From assembly GCF_900112415.1 (NCBI RefSeq), contig NZ_FOLV01000033.1, positions 1-42,351 of the forward strand: a stretch of 42,351 nt of DNA, in the 5' to 3' direction. Position 1 is the stretch's first letter; each line of letters starts with the position of its first letter. The notes under the pieces are model-generated. The model was given only the letters and a program-made list of their open reading frames with translations. It searched no databases and was not told where the DNA came from. Made by a program: the position numbers and the translations under genes. The DNA is from Bacillus sp. 491mf. GTDB taxonomy: Bacteria; Bacillota; Bacilli; Bacillales; Bacillaceae_G. Of the stretch, positions 18,797 to 25,112 are shown in pieces.

Positions 18797-18828
18797 TAAG
18801 CGTTTAACTGGAATTCGTATAAAAACTG

Positions 18829-18860
18829 CAAGCCCCTTCAATTTTATGAAGGGGCTTTTC
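18829..18860. terminator. Terminator between ger operon and mdaB
   Basis: AAGCCCCTTCA pairs with TGAAGGGGCTT across ATTTTA-type loop, with TTTTC on the right and AAAA on the left, so it can serve both converging operons. Confidence 0.88.
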
Positions 18861-18874
18861 TCATGACAGCTGAT

Positions 18875-19426
18875 TTAAAGCGGTAATACTTGTTCTAGAT
18901 GTGTATTCAGTTCAAATATAAATTTATCAATATCTGGATTTTTTATTACATCATAGCAAGCAAAGCTCTTTAATGGTTTCATGCCGATAAAATCTTGTGT
19001 GCGGTGTAAATGACTGAGTGCTTCTTCTAAACTCTTTCCTCCAAAGAATTGTGCTGGATCGTTAAATGCTTGTTTAGGAGCATTCCATGTAGTTGAAAAC
19101 ATATAGTGTTTGTCAGTTAATAAGCCGCCTCTTCCATATTGCTCAGATCCTTTGAAAAATAATCCATAAGCATACACTTCATCCATATATGTCTTCAGTA
19201 AACCAGGCACATTGAACCAATAAATAGGTGTTTGAAAGATGATAATATCAGCCCATAAAAACTTACTTTGTTCTTCCTCGATATTGTATCCGTTTTGAAC
19301 AACTGTTGTTTGGACATCGTTATTTGCACTTAATACATTCACTATGTTATCTGTTAAGGTTTTATTTAATGTTCCTTCTGCTGATCTGTAAGTTTGATGG
19401 CCGTTTATAATAAGGATATTTTTCAT
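18875..19426 (-). CDS. mdaB: MdaB-like NAD(P)H:quinone oxidoreductase (flavodoxin fold)
   Basis: This 183-residue protein is an MdaB/KefF-type FAD-dependent quinone reductase. It shows the flavodoxin-like start MKNILIINGHQTY, the FAD/NAD loop ADIIIFQTPIYWFNVPGLLKTYMD, and TTWNAPKQAF in the C-terminal half. Such enzymes reduce quinones by two electrons and guard against electrophiles. I use the internal ATG 19426, which follows AAAGGGG; the longer frame from 19462 has no ribosome site. It is the second gene of a leftward operon after a SnoaL lipoprotein, divergent from an HxlR regulator. Confidence 0.87.
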   Translation of the reverse strand: MKNILIINGHQTYRSAEGTLNKTLTDNIVNVLSANNDVQTTVVQNGYNIEEEQSKFLWADIIIFQTPIYWFNVPGLLKTYMDEVYAYGLFFKGSEQYGRGGLLTDKHYMFSTTWNAPKQAFNDPAQFFGGKSLEEALSHLHRTQDFIGMKPLKSFACYDVIKNPDIDKFIFELNTHLEQVLPL

Positions 19427-19461
19427 TGTAGTTTTCCCCTTTATTTTATGATGTGTTTCCA

Positions 19462-20055
19462 TTAATTTTCCGGTACAACGCCGAGTTGTTGCATAAGCGT
19501 TAGATTATCTTCTAAGTGCCAATCTTCAACAATTTTTCCATCTTTCACTCGTAAAATATCGATAGCAAAGAAGTGAACAGCTTTGCCAGTTGGCTGTTTC
19601 TCTCCAAAGTTACCTTTATGTGTTCCAGTGAAGGATAGACGGGCTGTTACTTTGTCGCCAGTTACTAGTAAATCCTCGATGTTACACTGTAAGTCGGGAA
19701 CGGCTTTACGGAAATTGCTTGATGCAAATGTTAAGCCTTTTGGTCCTTGAGGACGCTCTTTTGGCAGCGTGTTATCAAAAAAGTTGTCTGTAACAGCTTG
19801 TGGGATTAGAGCATCATTACCAGTATTCCAAAATGCATAGAAGCGCTGGGCAGCATGAACCATTTCCATAGCTTTCTGTTGATTCAACGAAGGATCGATT
19901 GTCATCGATTTAGGTTGTGGAAAATCCTTCAACAATTGAATATCTTTCTTGGCTGGTGCAGCAGTCTTGTATTCTGATGTTTGTGTATGACAAGCAGCCA
20001 ACATAATCATGAACCCGAAGATACTTACGGCACTAGCTATGTTTTTTACACTCAT
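19462..20055 (-). CDS. SnoaL-like ester cyclase family lipoprotein
   Basis: This 197-residue protein has a lipoprotein signal: SIFGFMIMLAAC with the modified Cys at about residue 22. The mature part is an NTF2-fold SnoaL-like domain with FYAFWNTGNDALIPQAV, VTARLSFTGTHKGNFG and FFAIDILRVKDGKIVEDWH, the family ending motif. It would be anchored on the outer face of the membrane; its ligand is unknown. The start follows AAGGAGG. It leads the operon with mdaB; the promoter carries an element shared with the SDR gene at 22804. Confidence 0.85.
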   Translation of the reverse strand: MSVKNIASAVSIFGFMIMLAACHTQTSEYKTAAPAKKDIQLLKDFPQPKSMTIDPSLNQQKAMEMVHAAQRFYAFWNTGNDALIPQAVTDNFFDNTLPKERPQGPKGLTFASSNFRKAVPDLQCNIEDLLVTGDKVTARLSFTGTHKGNFGEKQPTGKAVHFFAIDILRVKDGKIVEDWHLEDNLTLMQQLGVVPEN

Positions 20056-20100
20056 TTTTATAACCTCCTTAATTTTATAAATAGTGTTAGGTTTAATGAT

Positions 20101-20157
20101 ATTGTATGTATAGCTAGTTTCTTTTGGGAAGTAGTGATATTTATTTCATATAGTTAC
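20101..20157 (-). promoter_or_regulatory. Promoter and shared 30-bp element before the SnoaL-mdaB operon
   Basis: Read leftward, GTAACTATATGAA, A, TAAATATCACTACTTC (20157-20128) is followed by AAAAGAAA and a -10-like TACAAT (20106-20101). The -35 region is poor. The 30-bp element occurs with one mismatch before the SDR gene (22706-22735), at the same distance from TACAAT. It contains an imperfect dyad GTAACTATA / TATCACTAC. It also overlaps the weak -35 of the divergent HxlR gene (-10 TACTAT, 20177-20182). Confidence 0.7.
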
Positions 20158-20221
20158 CGTAAGGATAGAATTGTGATACTATAAAGAAAATGAATCGAAA
20201 AAATTTTAGGAGCGTGGTTCA

Positions 20222-20560
20222 GTGAGTAACATGGAGCAAATCAAATTAACAAAAGGGACACCAGGACAGGTTTGTCCCATTGCGAAAACACTTGATGTGA
20301 TTGGGACAAAGTGGACGTTTTTAATTATTCGGGATCTTCTTATTGAAGGAACGATGCGATTTAGTGATTTGCAAAAATCAATAGACGGAATTAGCCCGAA
20401 AACGCTCTCGCTTCGTTTGAAGGAACTTGAAGCACACGGAATTGTAGAAAGAACGGTATATCCAGAAGTTCCCCCGCGGGTTGAATATACATTAACGGAG
20501 AAGGGAGAACGTTTAGAACATATTTTTATTGAATTAAAGCGCTTCGGATTAACGTTATAG
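20222..20560 (+). CDS. HxlR family transcriptional regulator
   Basis: This 112-residue protein is a typical HxlR winged-helix regulator: CPIAKTLDVIGTKWTFLIIR at residues 18-37, LRFSDLQ-like RFSDLQKSIDGISPKTLSLR as recognition helix, and PRVEYTLTEKGERL as the wing. One Cys, C18, sits where YodB and HypR carry their redox-active Cys, which senses quinones or aldehydes. The GTG start follows AGGAG by about 9 bases; an ATG 9 bases further in is too far. It is divergent from SnoaL-mdaB and probably controls that operon and the SDR gene. Confidence 0.9.
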   Translation: MSNMEQIKLTKGTPGQVCPIAKTLDVIGTKWTFLIIRDLLIEGTMRFSDLQKSIDGISPKTLSLRLKELEAHGIVERTVYPEVPPRVEYTLTEKGERLEHIFIELKRFGLTL

Positions 20561-20585
20561 AAAACACTGTAAATAATCACAAATA

Positions 20586-20620
20586 AAAGCGCTCAGAATT
20601 CTATCATTCTGAGCGCTGAT
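20586..20620 (-). terminator. Terminator for the HAD gene
   Basis: AGCGCTCAGAAT pairs perfectly with ATTCTGAGCGCT across a 6-base loop; leftward it runs into TTTTATTT. It also lies just after the HxlR gene. Confidence 0.8.
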
Positions 20621-21313
20621 TTATGATTTCGTAAAGTATTCATTTGTTTCGTAAGCGATTTTCATCTTAGGCAACAATGTCTTTAACTCCATTAAGTCAT
20701 TTATTACAAAATCAGCTTGTGCAAGTTCCTCTTCTTGTGCAAAATCAAAATTACATCCAATTGCGATCAAAGCATTATCTTTCGCTGCATTTATATCAGA
20801 TAGACGATCACCGACTACTGCTGCCTTTTTTATATCATATTTTTCGATAATTGTTTTAACTAAATCACCTTTATCGAGCGTTTGTATTTGTTGAATACTA
20901 AATGTTTCAGTAACCCAATTATTCAAATTATAATAACTTACAATTGCTTGTAAATATTCCGTTAAACCATTACTTGCTATGTAAATAGAATAATTATTTT
21001 CTTTTAAATAACTGAAAACTTCCTCAACGTTAGGATATAAAGCACCTTTCCCGCTTCTTATGTTTTCAATTAATCTTTCCAAAAAATAAGCATCCGTTTG
21101 TGCTCTTACTTCACTAGAATGATTAGGTAACAAAGCTTCCCATACTTTTGGTAAAGGTACTCCCATAATTTCACGATATGTATCAATAGGGGTTACTGTA
21201 TCCCATAAACGTAGTGATCGTAAATGATTAAAAGTATCATCAAGTGATAATTCTAGAATTTTTTCTGTTTGAAATAAAGTACCGTCCATATCAAAAATTA
21301 ATGATTGTAACAT
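20621..21313 (-). CDS. HAD superfamily phosphatase
   Basis: This 230-residue protein is a beta-phosphoglucomutase/phosphoglycolate phosphatase-like HAD hydrolase. Motif I is FDMDGTLFQTE with the nucleophile Asp, the alpha-helical cap follows at about 18-85, motif II is IYIASNG, the motif III Lys is in LDKGDL, and motif IV is VGDRLSDINAAK. The substrate is likely a small phosphorylated metabolite and cannot be named. I use the ATG at 21313 after AGGGAGA; the frame is open further upstream but without a ribosome site. It stands alone. Confidence 0.86.
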   Translation of the reverse strand: MLQSLIFDMDGTLFQTEKILELSLDDTFNHLRSLRLWDTVTPIDTYREIMGVPLPKVWEALLPNHSSEVRAQTDAYFLERLIENIRSGKGALYPNVEEVFSYLKENNYSIYIASNGLTEYLQAIVSYYNLNNWVTETFSIQQIQTLDKGDLVKTIIEKYDIKKAAVVGDRLSDINAAKDNALIAIGCNFDFAQEEELAQADFVINDLMELKTLLPKMKIAYETNEYFTKS

Positions 21314-21450
21314 TGGTTTCTCTCCCTTTTTATCATTGCTGACATAACTTAAATTCCTATTCAACGAATGCGACTTATCAGTTTACGTGCAAATTCTCGT
21401 AATCTTTAAATAAATTTTAACATAAATTTACAATGGTCATTCTCATTTTT

Positions 21451-21607
21451 TATCCCGCATTAACGGGCAGTAAGACCTCCACCTCAAGATTGAGAGAAAA
21501 GCGAAGAAGATAGGTGGAGGATAACTGCCCGTAAAAGCCCGATTGGTGAGGGCTGATAATCAGTGGGGGATGAAGAAAACCCCCACTGATTAAAGTTTCA
21601 CTTTATT
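21451..21607 (-). repeat. Dispersed hairpin repeat, family 1, copy D
   Basis: On the minus strand it starts AAAGTGAAACTTTAATCAGT and ends ACTGCCCGTTAATGCGGGAT. It forms ATCAGTGGGGG...CCCCCACTGAT, then ACGGGCAGT...ACTGCCCGT enclosing CCTCCACCT...AGGTGGAGG. The outer and inner arms differ from copies B and C but pair equally well. Confidence 0.82.
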
Positions 21608-21650
21608 AAGCATGATGAAAACAAGAATTTCATCATACAAGGAGGAAAAA

Positions 21651-22645
21651 ATGAAAAGGATTTTACTCGTGCTAGGAATTGTAATACTGGGATTGGCAGG
21701 ATGGATTGTATACCAACATTTTTATGATATGAAGCAAGAAGAAGTAACGATTCAAACGAAAGAAACTACATTACACGGTGTTGTTTCTTTTCCTAAAGAA
21801 AAAGAAAAGCCAGGATTAATTATTTTTGTTCATGGTGATGGACCTGTAAACGCAATGTATGATGATGGCTATTTACCTTTATGGGAGGAATTAGCGAAAA
21901 AAGGGTATGCGTCCTTAGCTTGGGATAAGCCTGGTATTGGAAAATCAACTGGAGATTGGCTAAATCAGTCGATGGAAGATCGCGCCAATGAAGTAATCGA
22001 AGTGATTGAATGGGCAAAGAAAAATCTTGATATTGATCCTAAAAAAATAGGTTTATGGGGAGCGAGTCAAGGAGGATGGGTTGTCCCAAAAGTAGCGAAT
22101 GCTAGTGATGATGTTTCGTTTAGTATTTTAGTGTCACCTGCGATTAATTGGATCGAACAAGGAAAGTATTATACGGAAAAAGTATGACTAGTACTGGTGC
22201 AACGAAAGAAGAAATCAATCAACGAATGAAAAATAATGAAAAAGTTCTAGAGTTACTTTTGAAAAATAGTAATTATGAAGAATACAAAGATGTAACGAAT
22301 GATAAAGGAGGTATCTCTAAAGAAAGATGGAATTTTATTAAAAAGAATGTAAATAGCGATGCAACAAAGGACCTCATAGAAACAAAAAAGCCTGTTCAGT
22401 TAATTGTTGGTGGCTGTGATGAAAATGTAGATGTTAAAAACACGATGGAAGTTTATAAAAAAGAAGTGCGGAAAGAGTTGTTATCGGTATCTTATTTACC
22501 TGAAGCAAATCACTCCATGTTGAAACCACAATATGTAAATTCGGAGTTGGGTATGTTTGTGAAATCTATTTTTGACCCTAGAGGGTTATTTGACGATGAA
22601 TATGTGAAGTCGGTTAGTGAGTTTGTCGATCAGATGAAGAGATGA
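21651..22645 (+). pseudogene. Alpha/beta hydrolase with one-base frameshift
   Basis: The first frame (21651-22187) begins MKRILLVLGIVILGLAGWIV, a signal anchor, then FVHGDGPVN (oxyanion loop) and the nucleophile elbow GLWGASQGGW, ending ...YYTEKV. The next frame continues without break as SMTSTGATKEEINQRM and onward with GGCDENVDV (acid Asp) and NHSMLKP (catalytic His), to 22645. The run GGAAAAAGTATG has five A; a sixth would join both halves as TEKSMTS. The whole is 995 bases, one short. The ancestral protein would be a membrane-anchored serine hydrolase of about 331 residues. It could be a sequencing error in the A run. Confidence 0.85.
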
Positions 22646-22705
22646 AGTGAATACAGTAAATTTTTTTAGAAGTTCCCCCTTATTAAAAAAGAAACTTTCC
22701 AAAAA

Positions 22706-22761
22706 GTAACTATATGAATTAAATATCACTACTTCAAAAAAGAAAGTTATAGAATTACAAT
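22706..22761 (+). promoter_or_regulatory. Promoter and shared 30-bp element before the SDR gene
   Basis: GTAACTATATGAA, T, TAAATATCACTACTTC (22706-22735) then AAAAAAGAAA and TACAAT (22756-22761). It is the same arrangement as before SnoaL-mdaB, with one mismatch in 30 bases. The element is centred about 48 bases before the predicted start of transcription, which fits an activator. Confidence 0.7.
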
Positions 22762-22803
22762 AACCCCAGCAAAACAAAATAAGAAAAACTGGGGGAAATG
22801 AAC

Positions 22804-23517
22804 ATGTTACACAATAAAAAAGTTGTCATTATCGGTGGTAGTTCTGGAATTGGTTTAGAAACAGCGAGACTTGCACTTATGCATGGTAGCGAGGTCATCA
22901 TTGCTAGTCGTTCTGAGGGAAAGTTGCAAAGAGCAAAGGATCAGTTAGGGGGAAACGTAACAATTCATGTGCTTGATACGATGCAAGAACAACAAGTTCA
23001 ATCTTTTTTTGAAAAAGTAGGGCCAATTGATCATTTAGTTGTTACAGCAGCAGAAACATCTGGAGGCTCTTTTATCGATACAGATACAGCCGCAGCACGT
23101 CAGTTATTTGAAAATAAATTTTGGGGACAATTTTATGCAGCGAAATATGGTGCTCCGAAAATTGCTGGTAATGGTTCCATCACTTTATTTTCCGGAGTTG
23201 TCGCTTATAAATCAATGATTGGATCGGCAACACTTGGTGCAGTCAATGCCGCTGTTTCTAACCTTGGTCAAACGTTAGCGCTAGAACTAGCCCCAATTCG
23301 CATAAATGTTGTCTCACCAGGAATTATTGATACACCGTCACGCAGCAAAATGGCAGAAGAAGCGCGTAATACATTTTATACTGACTTAGGAAATAAACTT
23401 CCTGTAGGGCGAGTAGGAAATGCTGAAGATGTAGCACAAGCTGTACTATACGCTATGCAGAATGGGTTTGTTACAGGAACAGTTCTGCATGTTGAAGGTG
23501 GGCATGTTTTAATCTAA
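22804..23517 (+). CDS. SDR family oxidoreductase lacking the usual Tyr-Lys pair
   Basis: This protein of about 237 residues is a short-chain dehydrogenase/reductase with the NAD(P) motif GGSSGIGLE and SRSEGK, suggesting NADPH. The substrate region reads LFSGVVAYKSMIGSATLGAV NAAV: the usual Ser remains, but at the place of YxxxK the sequence has LGAVN, so Tyr and Lys appear replaced by Leu and Asn. The C-terminus GTVLHVEGGHVLI is normal. The ATG at 22804 is 9 bases after GGGGG; an ATG at 22798 is too close. Its promoter carries the element shared with the SnoaL-mdaB operon. Confidence 0.87.
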   Translation: MLHNKKVVIIGGSSGIGLETARLALMHGSEVIIASRSEGKLQRAKDQLGGNVTIHVLDTMQEQQVQSFFEKVGPIDHLVVTAAETSGGSFIDTDTAAARQLFENKFWGQFYAAKYGAPKIAGNGSITLFSGVVAYKSMIGSATLGAVNAAVSNLGQTLALELAPIRINVVSPGIIDTPSRSKMAEEARNTFYTDLGNKLPVGRVGNAEDVAQAVLYAMQNGFVTGTVLHVEGGHVLI

Positions 23518-23528
23518 TAGAATGAAAG

Positions 23529-23560
23529 ACGCTATTCTTTTTGAGAGAATAGCGTTCTGC
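23529..23560. terminator. Hairpin after the SDR gene
   Basis: ACGCTATTCT pairs perfectly with AGAATAGCGT across TTTTGAG, followed by a weak U tract. It lies between converging genes. Confidence 0.65.
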
Positions 23561-23566
23561 ATGTTT

Positions 23567-24151
23567 CTATATAAAATTTAGAGGATAAAAAACCTTCACC
23601 TTACGCCATTTCTCCTCCCACTTCTTTTTCTGTACACGTTCCACATATATATTTGTATATTCCTTCATTTCCTCATAATAAGGGGTCGGCCTTAGTTCTA
23701 AGTTAATGACGTCTTGCACGCCCCAAGGAGCAGCTAGTACAATTTCATCCTGTTCATTTAATTTCAAACCTAGTGCTGTTGCTGTTTCTGGAAATTTTGA
23801 TATAGCATCTACTGAAGAAGAAAAGGGTGGCATGTTGCTAATGATGTGCATTCTTGCTTCGTTTTTTACAGACCAAGGTACATTTGGAAACATATTCAGT
23901 AGTTGTTGCTCGTATTTCTTTTCTGCGGATTCATCAATATTTTCAGCATCAAAATAAACAACATCAACATCTGGAAGAGGCGTTCTTTCTTCAAACCCGT
24001 GCAAGGTATCCCATATTTTTGAACGGACAAACCCAGCGCATACCCACCAATCGGGTAATTGTAATTGTTTAGCAGTTTGTAATAGATCCATCATCCATGG
24101 ATCTTCTTTTACTAATCGGATAATGTCTTGTTCGTTTGTTAGTTTCATCAT
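23567..24151 (-). CDS. Nucleotidyltransferase family protein (DUF925/NTP_transf_6)
   Basis: This 194-residue protein matches the NTP_transf_6 family. It shows PDWWVCAGFVRSKIWDTLHGF near residues 33-53, the metal-binding PLPDVDVVYFD motif, NEARMHIISN, and the ending DVINLELRPTPYY. The DVD acid pair is as in other nucleotidyltransferases. The substrate is unknown. AAAGGAG precedes two ATG codons in a row (24151 and 24148). It is a single leftward gene. Confidence 0.85.
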   Translation of the reverse strand: MMKLTNEQDIIRLVKEDPWMMDLLQTAKQLQLPDWWVCAGFVRSKIWDTLHGFEERTPLPDVDVVYFDAENIDESAEKKYEQQLLNMFPNVPWSVKNEARMHIISNMPPFSSSVDAISKFPETATALGLKLNEQDEIVLAAPWGVQDVINLELRPTPYYEEMKEYTNIYVERVQKKKWEEKWRKVKVFYPLNFI

Positions 24152-24248
24152 ATTTCTCCTTTTATATGCTGTAAGAGCTGCTTCTATTGGATAATTTATT
24201 ATTTTTCTGAATTATATGATAACATATAAAAAAAGGGGGATACAGAAA

Positions 24249-25112
24249 ATGGAACATTTAAAAATTGGTGATATACAAGTAACATGGCTGCGAGGAGGAA
24301 ATACACATTTAGACGGCGGAGCAATGTTTGGCGTTGTACCGAAAGTACTTTGGTCACGCAAATATAGTCATAACGATAAAAATCAAATTTATTTACGAAC
24401 AGATCCATTGCTGCTGCAAACGAAAGATGGAAACATGCTTATCGATTCAGGGATGGGCAACAACAAAATGAATGAGAAGATGAAGCGAAATCAAGGAGTG
24501 ACAGAAGAGTCATCTGTTGAGCAATCGCTTGCTCAGCTTGGATTAAAAGCGGAAGATATTCATTATGTATTAATGACGCATCTTCATTTTGATCATGCCT
24601 CTGGTTTAACGAAATGGGAAGGTGAAAAGCTTGTTCCGACGTTTCCGAATGCCAAAATATATGTATCACAAACAGAATGGGATGAAATGAGAAATCCGAA
24701 TATTCGCTCATGCAATACATATTGGAAAGAAAATTGGGAGCCAATTGTGCATCAAGTCCAAACATTTATGGAAGAAGTACACATTACAGATGAAATCCGA
24801 ATGGTTCATACAGGCGGACATAGTGATGGACATGCCGTTGTCGTTGGGCAAAGTAAAGATGAAACATTCCTTCATTTAGCAGATTTACTACCAACACATG
24901 CGCATCAAAATGTACTGTGGGTCATGGCGTATGATGATTATCCGATGACATCTATTGAAAGTAAACAAAAGTGGATGAAATATGGCATAGAGCAGAATGC
25001 GTGGTTTACGTTCTATCATGATGCCTATTACCGTGCGGTGAAGTGGGATGAAGATGGGCATATGGCAGAAAAATTAGAACGAAAAGAAATAGAAATGACG
25101 AGCAAAGTGTAA
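24249..25112 (+). CDS. ytnP: YtnP-type metallo-beta-lactamase-fold hydrolase (lactonase)
   Basis: This 287-residue protein closely follows B. subtilis YtnP, reported as a quorum-quenching lactonase: [14 protein letters not shown] at the start, the zinc motif [16 protein letters not shown]-like [36 protein letters not shown], and [19 protein letters not shown] at the end. All His/Asp zinc ligands are present. I use the ATG at 24249 after AAAGGGGGA; the ATG at 24216 has no ribosome site. Two ABC permease genes follow 51 bp downstream in the same direction. Confidence 0.9.

What the first reader, a model, noticed from the sequence alone, without database searches (positions are those of the whole stretch)
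20101..22761. A 30-bp element shared by two distant promoters defines an HxlR regulon
The sequence upstream of the SnoaL lipoprotein-mdaB operon (20157-20128, minus) and of the SDR gene (22706-22735, plus) agrees at 29 of 30 positions, though the genes are unrelated and 2.6 kb apart with a HAD gene and a broken hydrolase between. Both elements are followed by AAAAGAAA and TACAAT at about the same distance, with poor -35 boxes, and are centred near -48. HxlR proteins such as HypR and HxlR activate from such positions and sense electrophiles by an N-terminal Cys; the divergent HxlR gene here has C18. Inference: one redox-sensing activator drives a quinone reductase, a SnoaL lipoprotein and an unusual SDR, and the overlap with its own -35 gives autocontrol.
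Basis: partly seen in the sequence, partly recalled or inferred. Interest (0 to 1): 0.8.

Follow-up and report, generated by a model that had tools for sequence, protein, structure and literature searches.

The report
Conserved HxlR operator and detoxification regulon
Two promoters in this window carry the same DNA control element, and comparison with related bacteria indicates it is the docking site of the neighbouring regulator HxlR, which probably controls a small set of detoxification enzymes; systems of this kind are familiar, but this particular control set was not found described.

Summary
In detail: 29/30 bases are shared, within a 51-nt inverted repeat, far above chance, and the window holds only these two copies. 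The element tracks this HxlR regulator: it lies in 44 of 48 hxlR-ortholog loci (71-88% identity) and in 0 of 32 loci with more distant HxlR genes. The SDR is not unrelated: in 27 of 48 loci it lies on the strand opposite hxlR, in 23 of these with mdaB; in 13 it follows hxlR, and the element then stands before the SDR, not before hxlR. Genome scans find unlinked copies before SnoaL, mdaB, SDR or Old Yellow Enzyme genes. In 296 genomes element and hxlR co-occur (48 both, 4 element only, 5 hxlR only, 239 neither). Conservation exceeds 30 bp: an upstream CACAA block, a block in the -35/-10 spacer, and 19-20 nt to the -10. Cys18 is invariant (52/52). An HxlR operator and regulon are well supported; activation and thiol sensing are inferred; autocontrol is possible only at divergent loci. 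No Bacillus cereus-group genome could be recognised for comparison. New member of a known kind.

The parts
20127..20158 (-). HxlR operator, copy 1 (SnoaL-mdaB promoter; also next to the hxlR promoter)
   Evidence: weight-matrix score 55.9; site of the same kind in 44 of 48 ortholog loci
20170..20175 (-). CACAAT, upstream conserved block of the control region; on the plus strand it lies in the hxlR promoter
   Evidence: a CACAA-like block is found in 13 of 14 tandem loci that have no hxlR promoter there
20101..20106 (-). -10 TACAAT of the SnoaL-mdaB promoter, 20 nt from the element
20177..20182 (+). probable -10 (TACTAT) of hxlR, 18 nt from the element on the other side
   Evidence: read directly from the sequence
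22705..22736 (+). HxlR operator, copy 2 (SDR promoter)
   Evidence: score 48.2
22756..22761 (+). -10 TACAAT of the SDR promoter, 19 nt from the element
20222..20560 (+). hxlR: HxlR/DUF24 regulator, 112 aa, single Cys18
   Evidence: PF01638 100.5 bits, cut-off 20.8; best match among solved structures is YybR (HypR) 4a5m
19462..20055 (-). SnoaL-domain lipoprotein
   Evidence: PF07366 143.5 bits; lipobox-like LAAC in the translation
18875..19462 (-). MdaB-type flavodoxin-fold NAD(P)H oxidoreductase
   Evidence: PF02525 130 bits
22798..23517 (+). SDR oxidoreductase (PRK07041 type)
   Evidence: NF005449 280.8 bits, cut-off 257; on the same strand beside mdaB in 23 of 48 relatives' loci

Best explanation
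The 30-bp element is the core of the operator of the HxlR/DUF24 protein encoded at 20222-20560. One regulator controls SnoaL-mdaB and, 2.6 kb away, the SDR. Steps shown by comparison: element, regulator and target genes travel together; the element follows the target genes rather than hxlR; unlinked copies sit before the same few gene families; spacing to the -10 is nearly fixed. Steps inferred: HxlR binds as one or two dimers to a control region of about 75 bp, contacts RNA polymerase from about -48 and activates a promoter with a good -10 and a weak to moderate -35, after modification of Cys18 by an electrophile (quinone, enal or other reactive carbonyl). The products (MFS efflux pump in some genomes, quinone reductase, Old Yellow Enzyme, SDR, SnoaL lipoprotein) would remove that electrophile. 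In the window the SDR seems to descend from the tandem hxlR-SDR layout, now parted by a HAD gene and a damaged hydrolase.
For: 29/30 match. Element in 44 of 48 ortholog loci and 0 of 32 distant-HxlR loci. mdaB with SDR in 23 of 48 loci, hxlR-SDR tandem in 13 of 48. Element followed by MFS, SnoaL, mdaB, SDR in L016 and by MFS, mdaB, SDR in L003; SnoaL-mdaB-SDR on a Priestia plasmid. Unlinked copies before SnoaL, SnoaL-mdaB, mdaB-SDR, SDR or OYE; in the genomes of L033 (Brevibacillus fluminis) and L041 (P. ferrarius) hxlR and the only element found lie on different contigs. Co-occurrence 48/4/5/239, Fisher 1.2e-44; 10 both, 2 element only, 0 hxlR only of 250; 3, 1, 0 of 249. Gap to the -10 is 20 nt in 36 of 41 divergent and 19 nt in 13 of 15 tandem sites. 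Three of the four element-only genomes carry it between a paralogous HxlR gene (50-55% identity) and an epimerase-like gene. Cys18 52/52.
Against: No binding or expression data. Activation rests on geometry alone; the conserved block inside the -35/-10 spacer would also suit repression, and the window's two -35 boxes match TTGACA at 4 of 6. Over all sites the -35 scores somewhat above random (mean best match 3.2 against 2.6). The element model was trained on sites found beside hxlR, so part of the co-occurrence is built in; of 35 element-bearing genomes outside the genomes, 31 have hxlR (hand count). One ortholog genome (L030/G045) shows no element. SnoaL is next to hxlR in only 3 of 48 ortholog loci. 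The upstream CACAA block is not clear at the window's SDR site.
Confidence: 0.85

Rival explanations
1. HxlR is a YodB/CatR-type repressor of the same regulon: bound without stress across element and spacer block, it blocks RNA polymerase and leaves when Cys18 is modified.
For: Conserved block at +1 to +14 after the element lies in the -35/-10 spacer; 31 of 41 divergent promoters have a perfect TATAAT and the window's -35 boxes match at 4 of 6, which could give basal transcription without an activator; YodB and CatR, of the same family, are repressors inactivated by thiol modification (passages of PMC6943732).
Against: The main conserved element lies upstream of the -35 at about -48 with nearly fixed spacing, which fits an activator better. 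The best match among solved structures is HypR/YybR, which PMC6943732 (passages) lists as activated, though the same paper elsewhere calls it a repressor.
Confidence: 0.3
2. The two copies are a recent duplication or conversion of promoter DNA without shared regulation.
For: 29/30 identity inside one window.
Against: Both sites fit old, separate classes: the SDR site has the 19-nt gap usual at tandem loci and its gene groups with tandem-type SDRs (97/91); the SnoaL site has the 20-nt gap usual at divergent loci. Element conserved over several genera.
Confidence: 0.02
3. The element is bound by another, widely held regulator (a global redox factor) and lies beside hxlR for historical reasons.
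For: No binding data; unlinked sites exist without hxlR at hand.
Against: No element in 239 of 243 genomes without this hxlR; of the four exceptions three have it beside an HxlR paralog.
Confidence: 0.05

Closest known systems
HypR (YybR) of Bacillus subtilis, regulator of hypO
   Same: Same DUF24 family and best match among solved structures (4a5m, E 4.7e-22); thiol sensing through Cys14; its regulon includes the flavin reductase gene hypO (PMC6943732, passages).
   Different: Different targets; the window protein has a single Cys, so a disulfide between two different cysteines, which I recall for HypR, is not open to it.
HxlR of Bacillus subtilis (hxlAB)
   Same: Same family; activates targets after a reactive carbonyl modifies the N-terminal Cys (PMC7835342, passages).
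   Different: HxlR joins Cys11 to Lys13 (C-x-K); here it is Cys18-P-I-A-Lys22, so that exact bridge cannot form; the target families found here are other ones than hxlAB.
YodB / CatR of Bacillus subtilis
   Same: DUF24 thiol sensors; [quoted passage not shown]
   Different: They are repressors; their operators were not compared here.

Membership tests
HxlR/DUF24 (PF01638) regulators | HxlR winged-helix domain above curated cut-off | tested here: met
   100.5 bits, cut-off 20.8
HxlR/DUF24 (PF01638) regulators | conserved N-terminal Cys of the thiol-sensing branch | tested here: met
   Cys18 in 52 of 52 rows covering the position, of 53 rows at 65% identity or more
HxlR of B. subtilis (formaldehyde sensor) | Cys-x-Lys for the methylene bridge | tested here: not met
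   motif is C-P-I-A-K; K22 in 49 of 52; C11/K13 from PMC7835342 (passages)
RrpB (NF047364) | NCBIfam curated cut-off | tested here: not met
   93.1 bits, cut-off 175
HypR-type activator | target transcription falls when the regulator is removed | not testable with these tools
   only promoter geometry is available
YodB/CatR-type repressor | targets derepressed in a mutant | not testable with these tools
   no expression data

The most novel reading that the evidence does not exclude
The control region is a composite operator of about 75 bp with four half-site-like blocks (CACAA/ACT, GTAACTATAT, ATATCACTAC, GGAAGTTA) for two cooperating DUF24 dimers that at divergent loci serve target promoter and hxlR promoter at once, and the sensor uses an invariant Cys18 with a nearly invariant Lys22 four residues on to trap reactive carbonyls; the regulon (efflux pump, quinone reductase, Old Yellow Enzyme, SDR, SnoaL) would be a dedicated pathway for unsaturated carbonyls or quinones.
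Probability: 0.2. Interest if true: 0.6.

Novelty: new member of a known kind. Interest (0 to 1): 0.45.

Why it matters
It gives a defined operator, a likely sensor protein and a short target list for an HxlR-type regulon found in scattered genomes of several genera of Bacilli and in one Pelosinus MAG. Ten searches of an open-licence paper library showed no description of it in their listings. It ties a SnoaL lipoprotein and an SDR of unknown substrate to quinone reductase and Old Yellow Enzyme, so the substrate question becomes testable by finding the inducer.

Tried and rejected
First palindrome pattern with a 6-nt spacer missed the window's own sites; replaced by a weight matrix built from aligned sites. 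A dyad scan gave no single dominant symmetry centre, so the half-site reading is only proposed; the two site classes were not cleanly sorted and were redone. Search of the family of Gottfriedia for closer relatives gave 19 genomes and one hit, Gottfriedia itself. Weak element matches: L148, L149 and L150 (E 3e-4 to 1e-3) have no match to the query proteins, HxlR included, within the 4 kb fetched; L125 (E 0.018) likewise; G037:C3, G052:C91 and G001:C14 (E 0.02-0.04) were not fetched. The L126 OYE site is itself weak by the model (E 0.019) and is kept on its gene and layout. L140/L151 (E 9.9e-4) precedes an epimerase gene without an HxlR match nearby; undecided. The SDR of L011, which matches in two pieces, and other rows under the length or identity cut are not in the tree. 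Rfam: no match in 18800-24300. No structure prediction was run. Papers: passages of PMC7835342 and PMC6943732 were seen; all others only as search listings with the start of the abstract.

Full report
Observation. The two elements match at 29 of 30 positions and sit in a 51-nt, 84% inverted repeat. About 1e-6 such pairs are expected by chance in the window, or 7e-5 with promoter base composition. A weight matrix finds no third copy in the window. The -35 boxes match TTGACA at 4 of 6 at best, so 'poor' is too strong.

Gene context in relatives. A scan of genome contigs with HxlR returned the best 80 of 122 loci; 48 (L001-L048) have 71-88% identity and are taken as orthologs, the other 32 have at most 59% and none of these 32 shows the element. 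In the 48 loci the SDR lies on the strand opposite hxlR in 27, of which 23 also have mdaB, and follows hxlR in tandem in 13; 8 have no SDR close by. Of those 8, four have a gene like the Old Yellow Enzyme of L126 (73-81% identity; L024, L037, L046, L047; Pfam Oxidored_FMN for L124 and L126), two have their targets elsewhere in the genome (L033 with L123, L041 with L120), one (L030) shows no element, and L048 is a partial match. SnoaL is beside hxlR in only 3 of 48 (L011, L012, L016). Some operons begin with an MFS-like transporter gene, judged from the translation only (L003, L004, L005, L016; cut short in L010). A Priestia megaterium plasmid carries SnoaL-mdaB-SDR divergent from hxlR with the element.

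The element follows the targets. A site is present in 44 of 48 ortholog loci. In the window, L001-L048 and L118-L147, 71 sites were classed: 42 divergent from an HxlR gene (mdaB 18, OYE 7, SDR 5, SnoaL 4, and 8 that resolves into 5 MFS-led operons and 3 epimerase-like genes beside an HxlR paralog), 15 tandem before the SDR, and 14 unlinked (SnoaL 7, SDR 4 including the window's, mdaB 1, OYE 1, one weak and undecided). Most divergent and tandem sites were found because hxlR is there; the unlinked ones, apart from the window's, come from whole-genome scans. Several unlinked SnoaL sites are near-copies, among them that of P. elgii, and are not independent. One locus (L037/L124) is counted twice; 70 distinct sequences entered.

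Whole-genome scans. A sequence-only model of 37 sites found a site at E 0.05 or better in 38 of 39 ortholog genomes, exactly one in 30. In 296 genomes of the order of P. elgii 52 have the element and 53 the hxlR gene, 48 both (Fisher 1.2e-44). Of the 52, 35 were outside the genomes and so outside training; 31 of those have hxlR (hand count). Of 59 sites, 13 are not beside the ortholog (hand comparison): 9 precede SnoaL, SnoaL-mdaB or SDR genes, 3 lie between an HxlR paralog and an epimerase-like gene, 1 is weak. Of 5 genomes with hxlR but no model match, 3 have a degraded site on inspection (L141, L142, L143). In two further samples the counts are 10 both, 2 element only, 0 hxlR only of 250 and 3, 1, 0 of 249; those three element-only matches cover 23 of 34 positions, with no HxlR or target match nearby.

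Anatomy. Distance to the -10: 20 nt in 36 of 41 divergent and 12 of 14 unlinked sites, 19 nt in 13 of 15 tandem sites. Perfect TATAAT in 31 of 41 divergent, 12 of 14 unlinked and 0 of 15 tandem sites. The best -35 matches TTGACA at 3.2 positions on average, random 2.6. Conservation goes beyond 30 bp: a CACAA block (one mismatch allowed) starting 15-21 nt upstream in 13 of 14 tandem, 8 of 13 unlinked and 29 of 31 divergent loci after removal of near-copies (control position 3, 4 and 7), and a block inside the spacer. In tandem loci no hxlR promoter lies there, so the upstream block is probably part of the control region. At divergent loci it overlaps hxlR's own promoter, which allows autocontrol there only. 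In the window the CACAAT block is present at the SnoaL site but not clearly at the SDR site.

History. In an SDR tree of 52 rows the window's SDR joins three tandem-type SDRs (97/91; bootstrap not settled, two of the three on long branches). With the 19-nt gap this suggests that the window's layout is the tandem one, parted by the HAD and hydrolase genes, with SnoaL-mdaB on the divergent side.

Mechanism. Shown by comparison: operator-regulator-target linkage. Inferred: HxlR binding, activation (about 0.6 against 0.3 for repression; set a little lower than in my draft because the window's -35 boxes match at 4 of 6), and sensing by Cys18 (52 of 52; Lys22 49 of 52). HxlR of B. subtilis uses Cys11-Lys13 (PMC7835342, passages); HypR, YodB and CatR sense through N-terminal Cys (PMC6943732, passages). 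The target set points to quinones or unsaturated carbonyls as inducer; this is inference.

Novelty. The kind is known (DUF24 thiol regulon); the operator and target set did not appear in the listings of ten paper searches of an open-licence library.

Noticed in passing
21651-22645: An alpha/beta-hydrolase gene appears split into two overlapping reading frames (21651-22187 and 22148-22645); only the first matches Pfam or NCBIfam families.
   Followed up: no
21452-21600: Intergenic stretch with an inverted repeat (21452-21471 / 21524-21543); from memory it resembles the bcr-type repeats of the B. cereus group; no Rfam match.
   Followed up: no
L130 (CP031730, labelled Stenotrophomonas rhizophila plasmid): Holds an hxlR (81%), SDR (77%) and an element identical to that of Lysinibacillus fusiformis L040; perhaps a Firmicute contig filed under a wrong organism, or a recent transfer.
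   Followed up: partly
L137, L138, L139: A different HxlR paralog (50-55% identity) stands divergent from an epimerase-like gene with a variant of the same operator, so the operator type seems to span two HxlR branches.
   Followed up: partly
L122 and L027: Lysinibacillus sphaericus carries two copies of the module, each with its own hxlR, element and SDR.
   Followed up: no
L129: A Priestia megaterium plasmid holds only pieces of the SDR gene, with no gene annotated there.
   Followed up: no
L011 4451-5163: The SDR of Paenibacillus caseinilyticus matches in two pieces, so it may be frameshifted.
   Followed up: no
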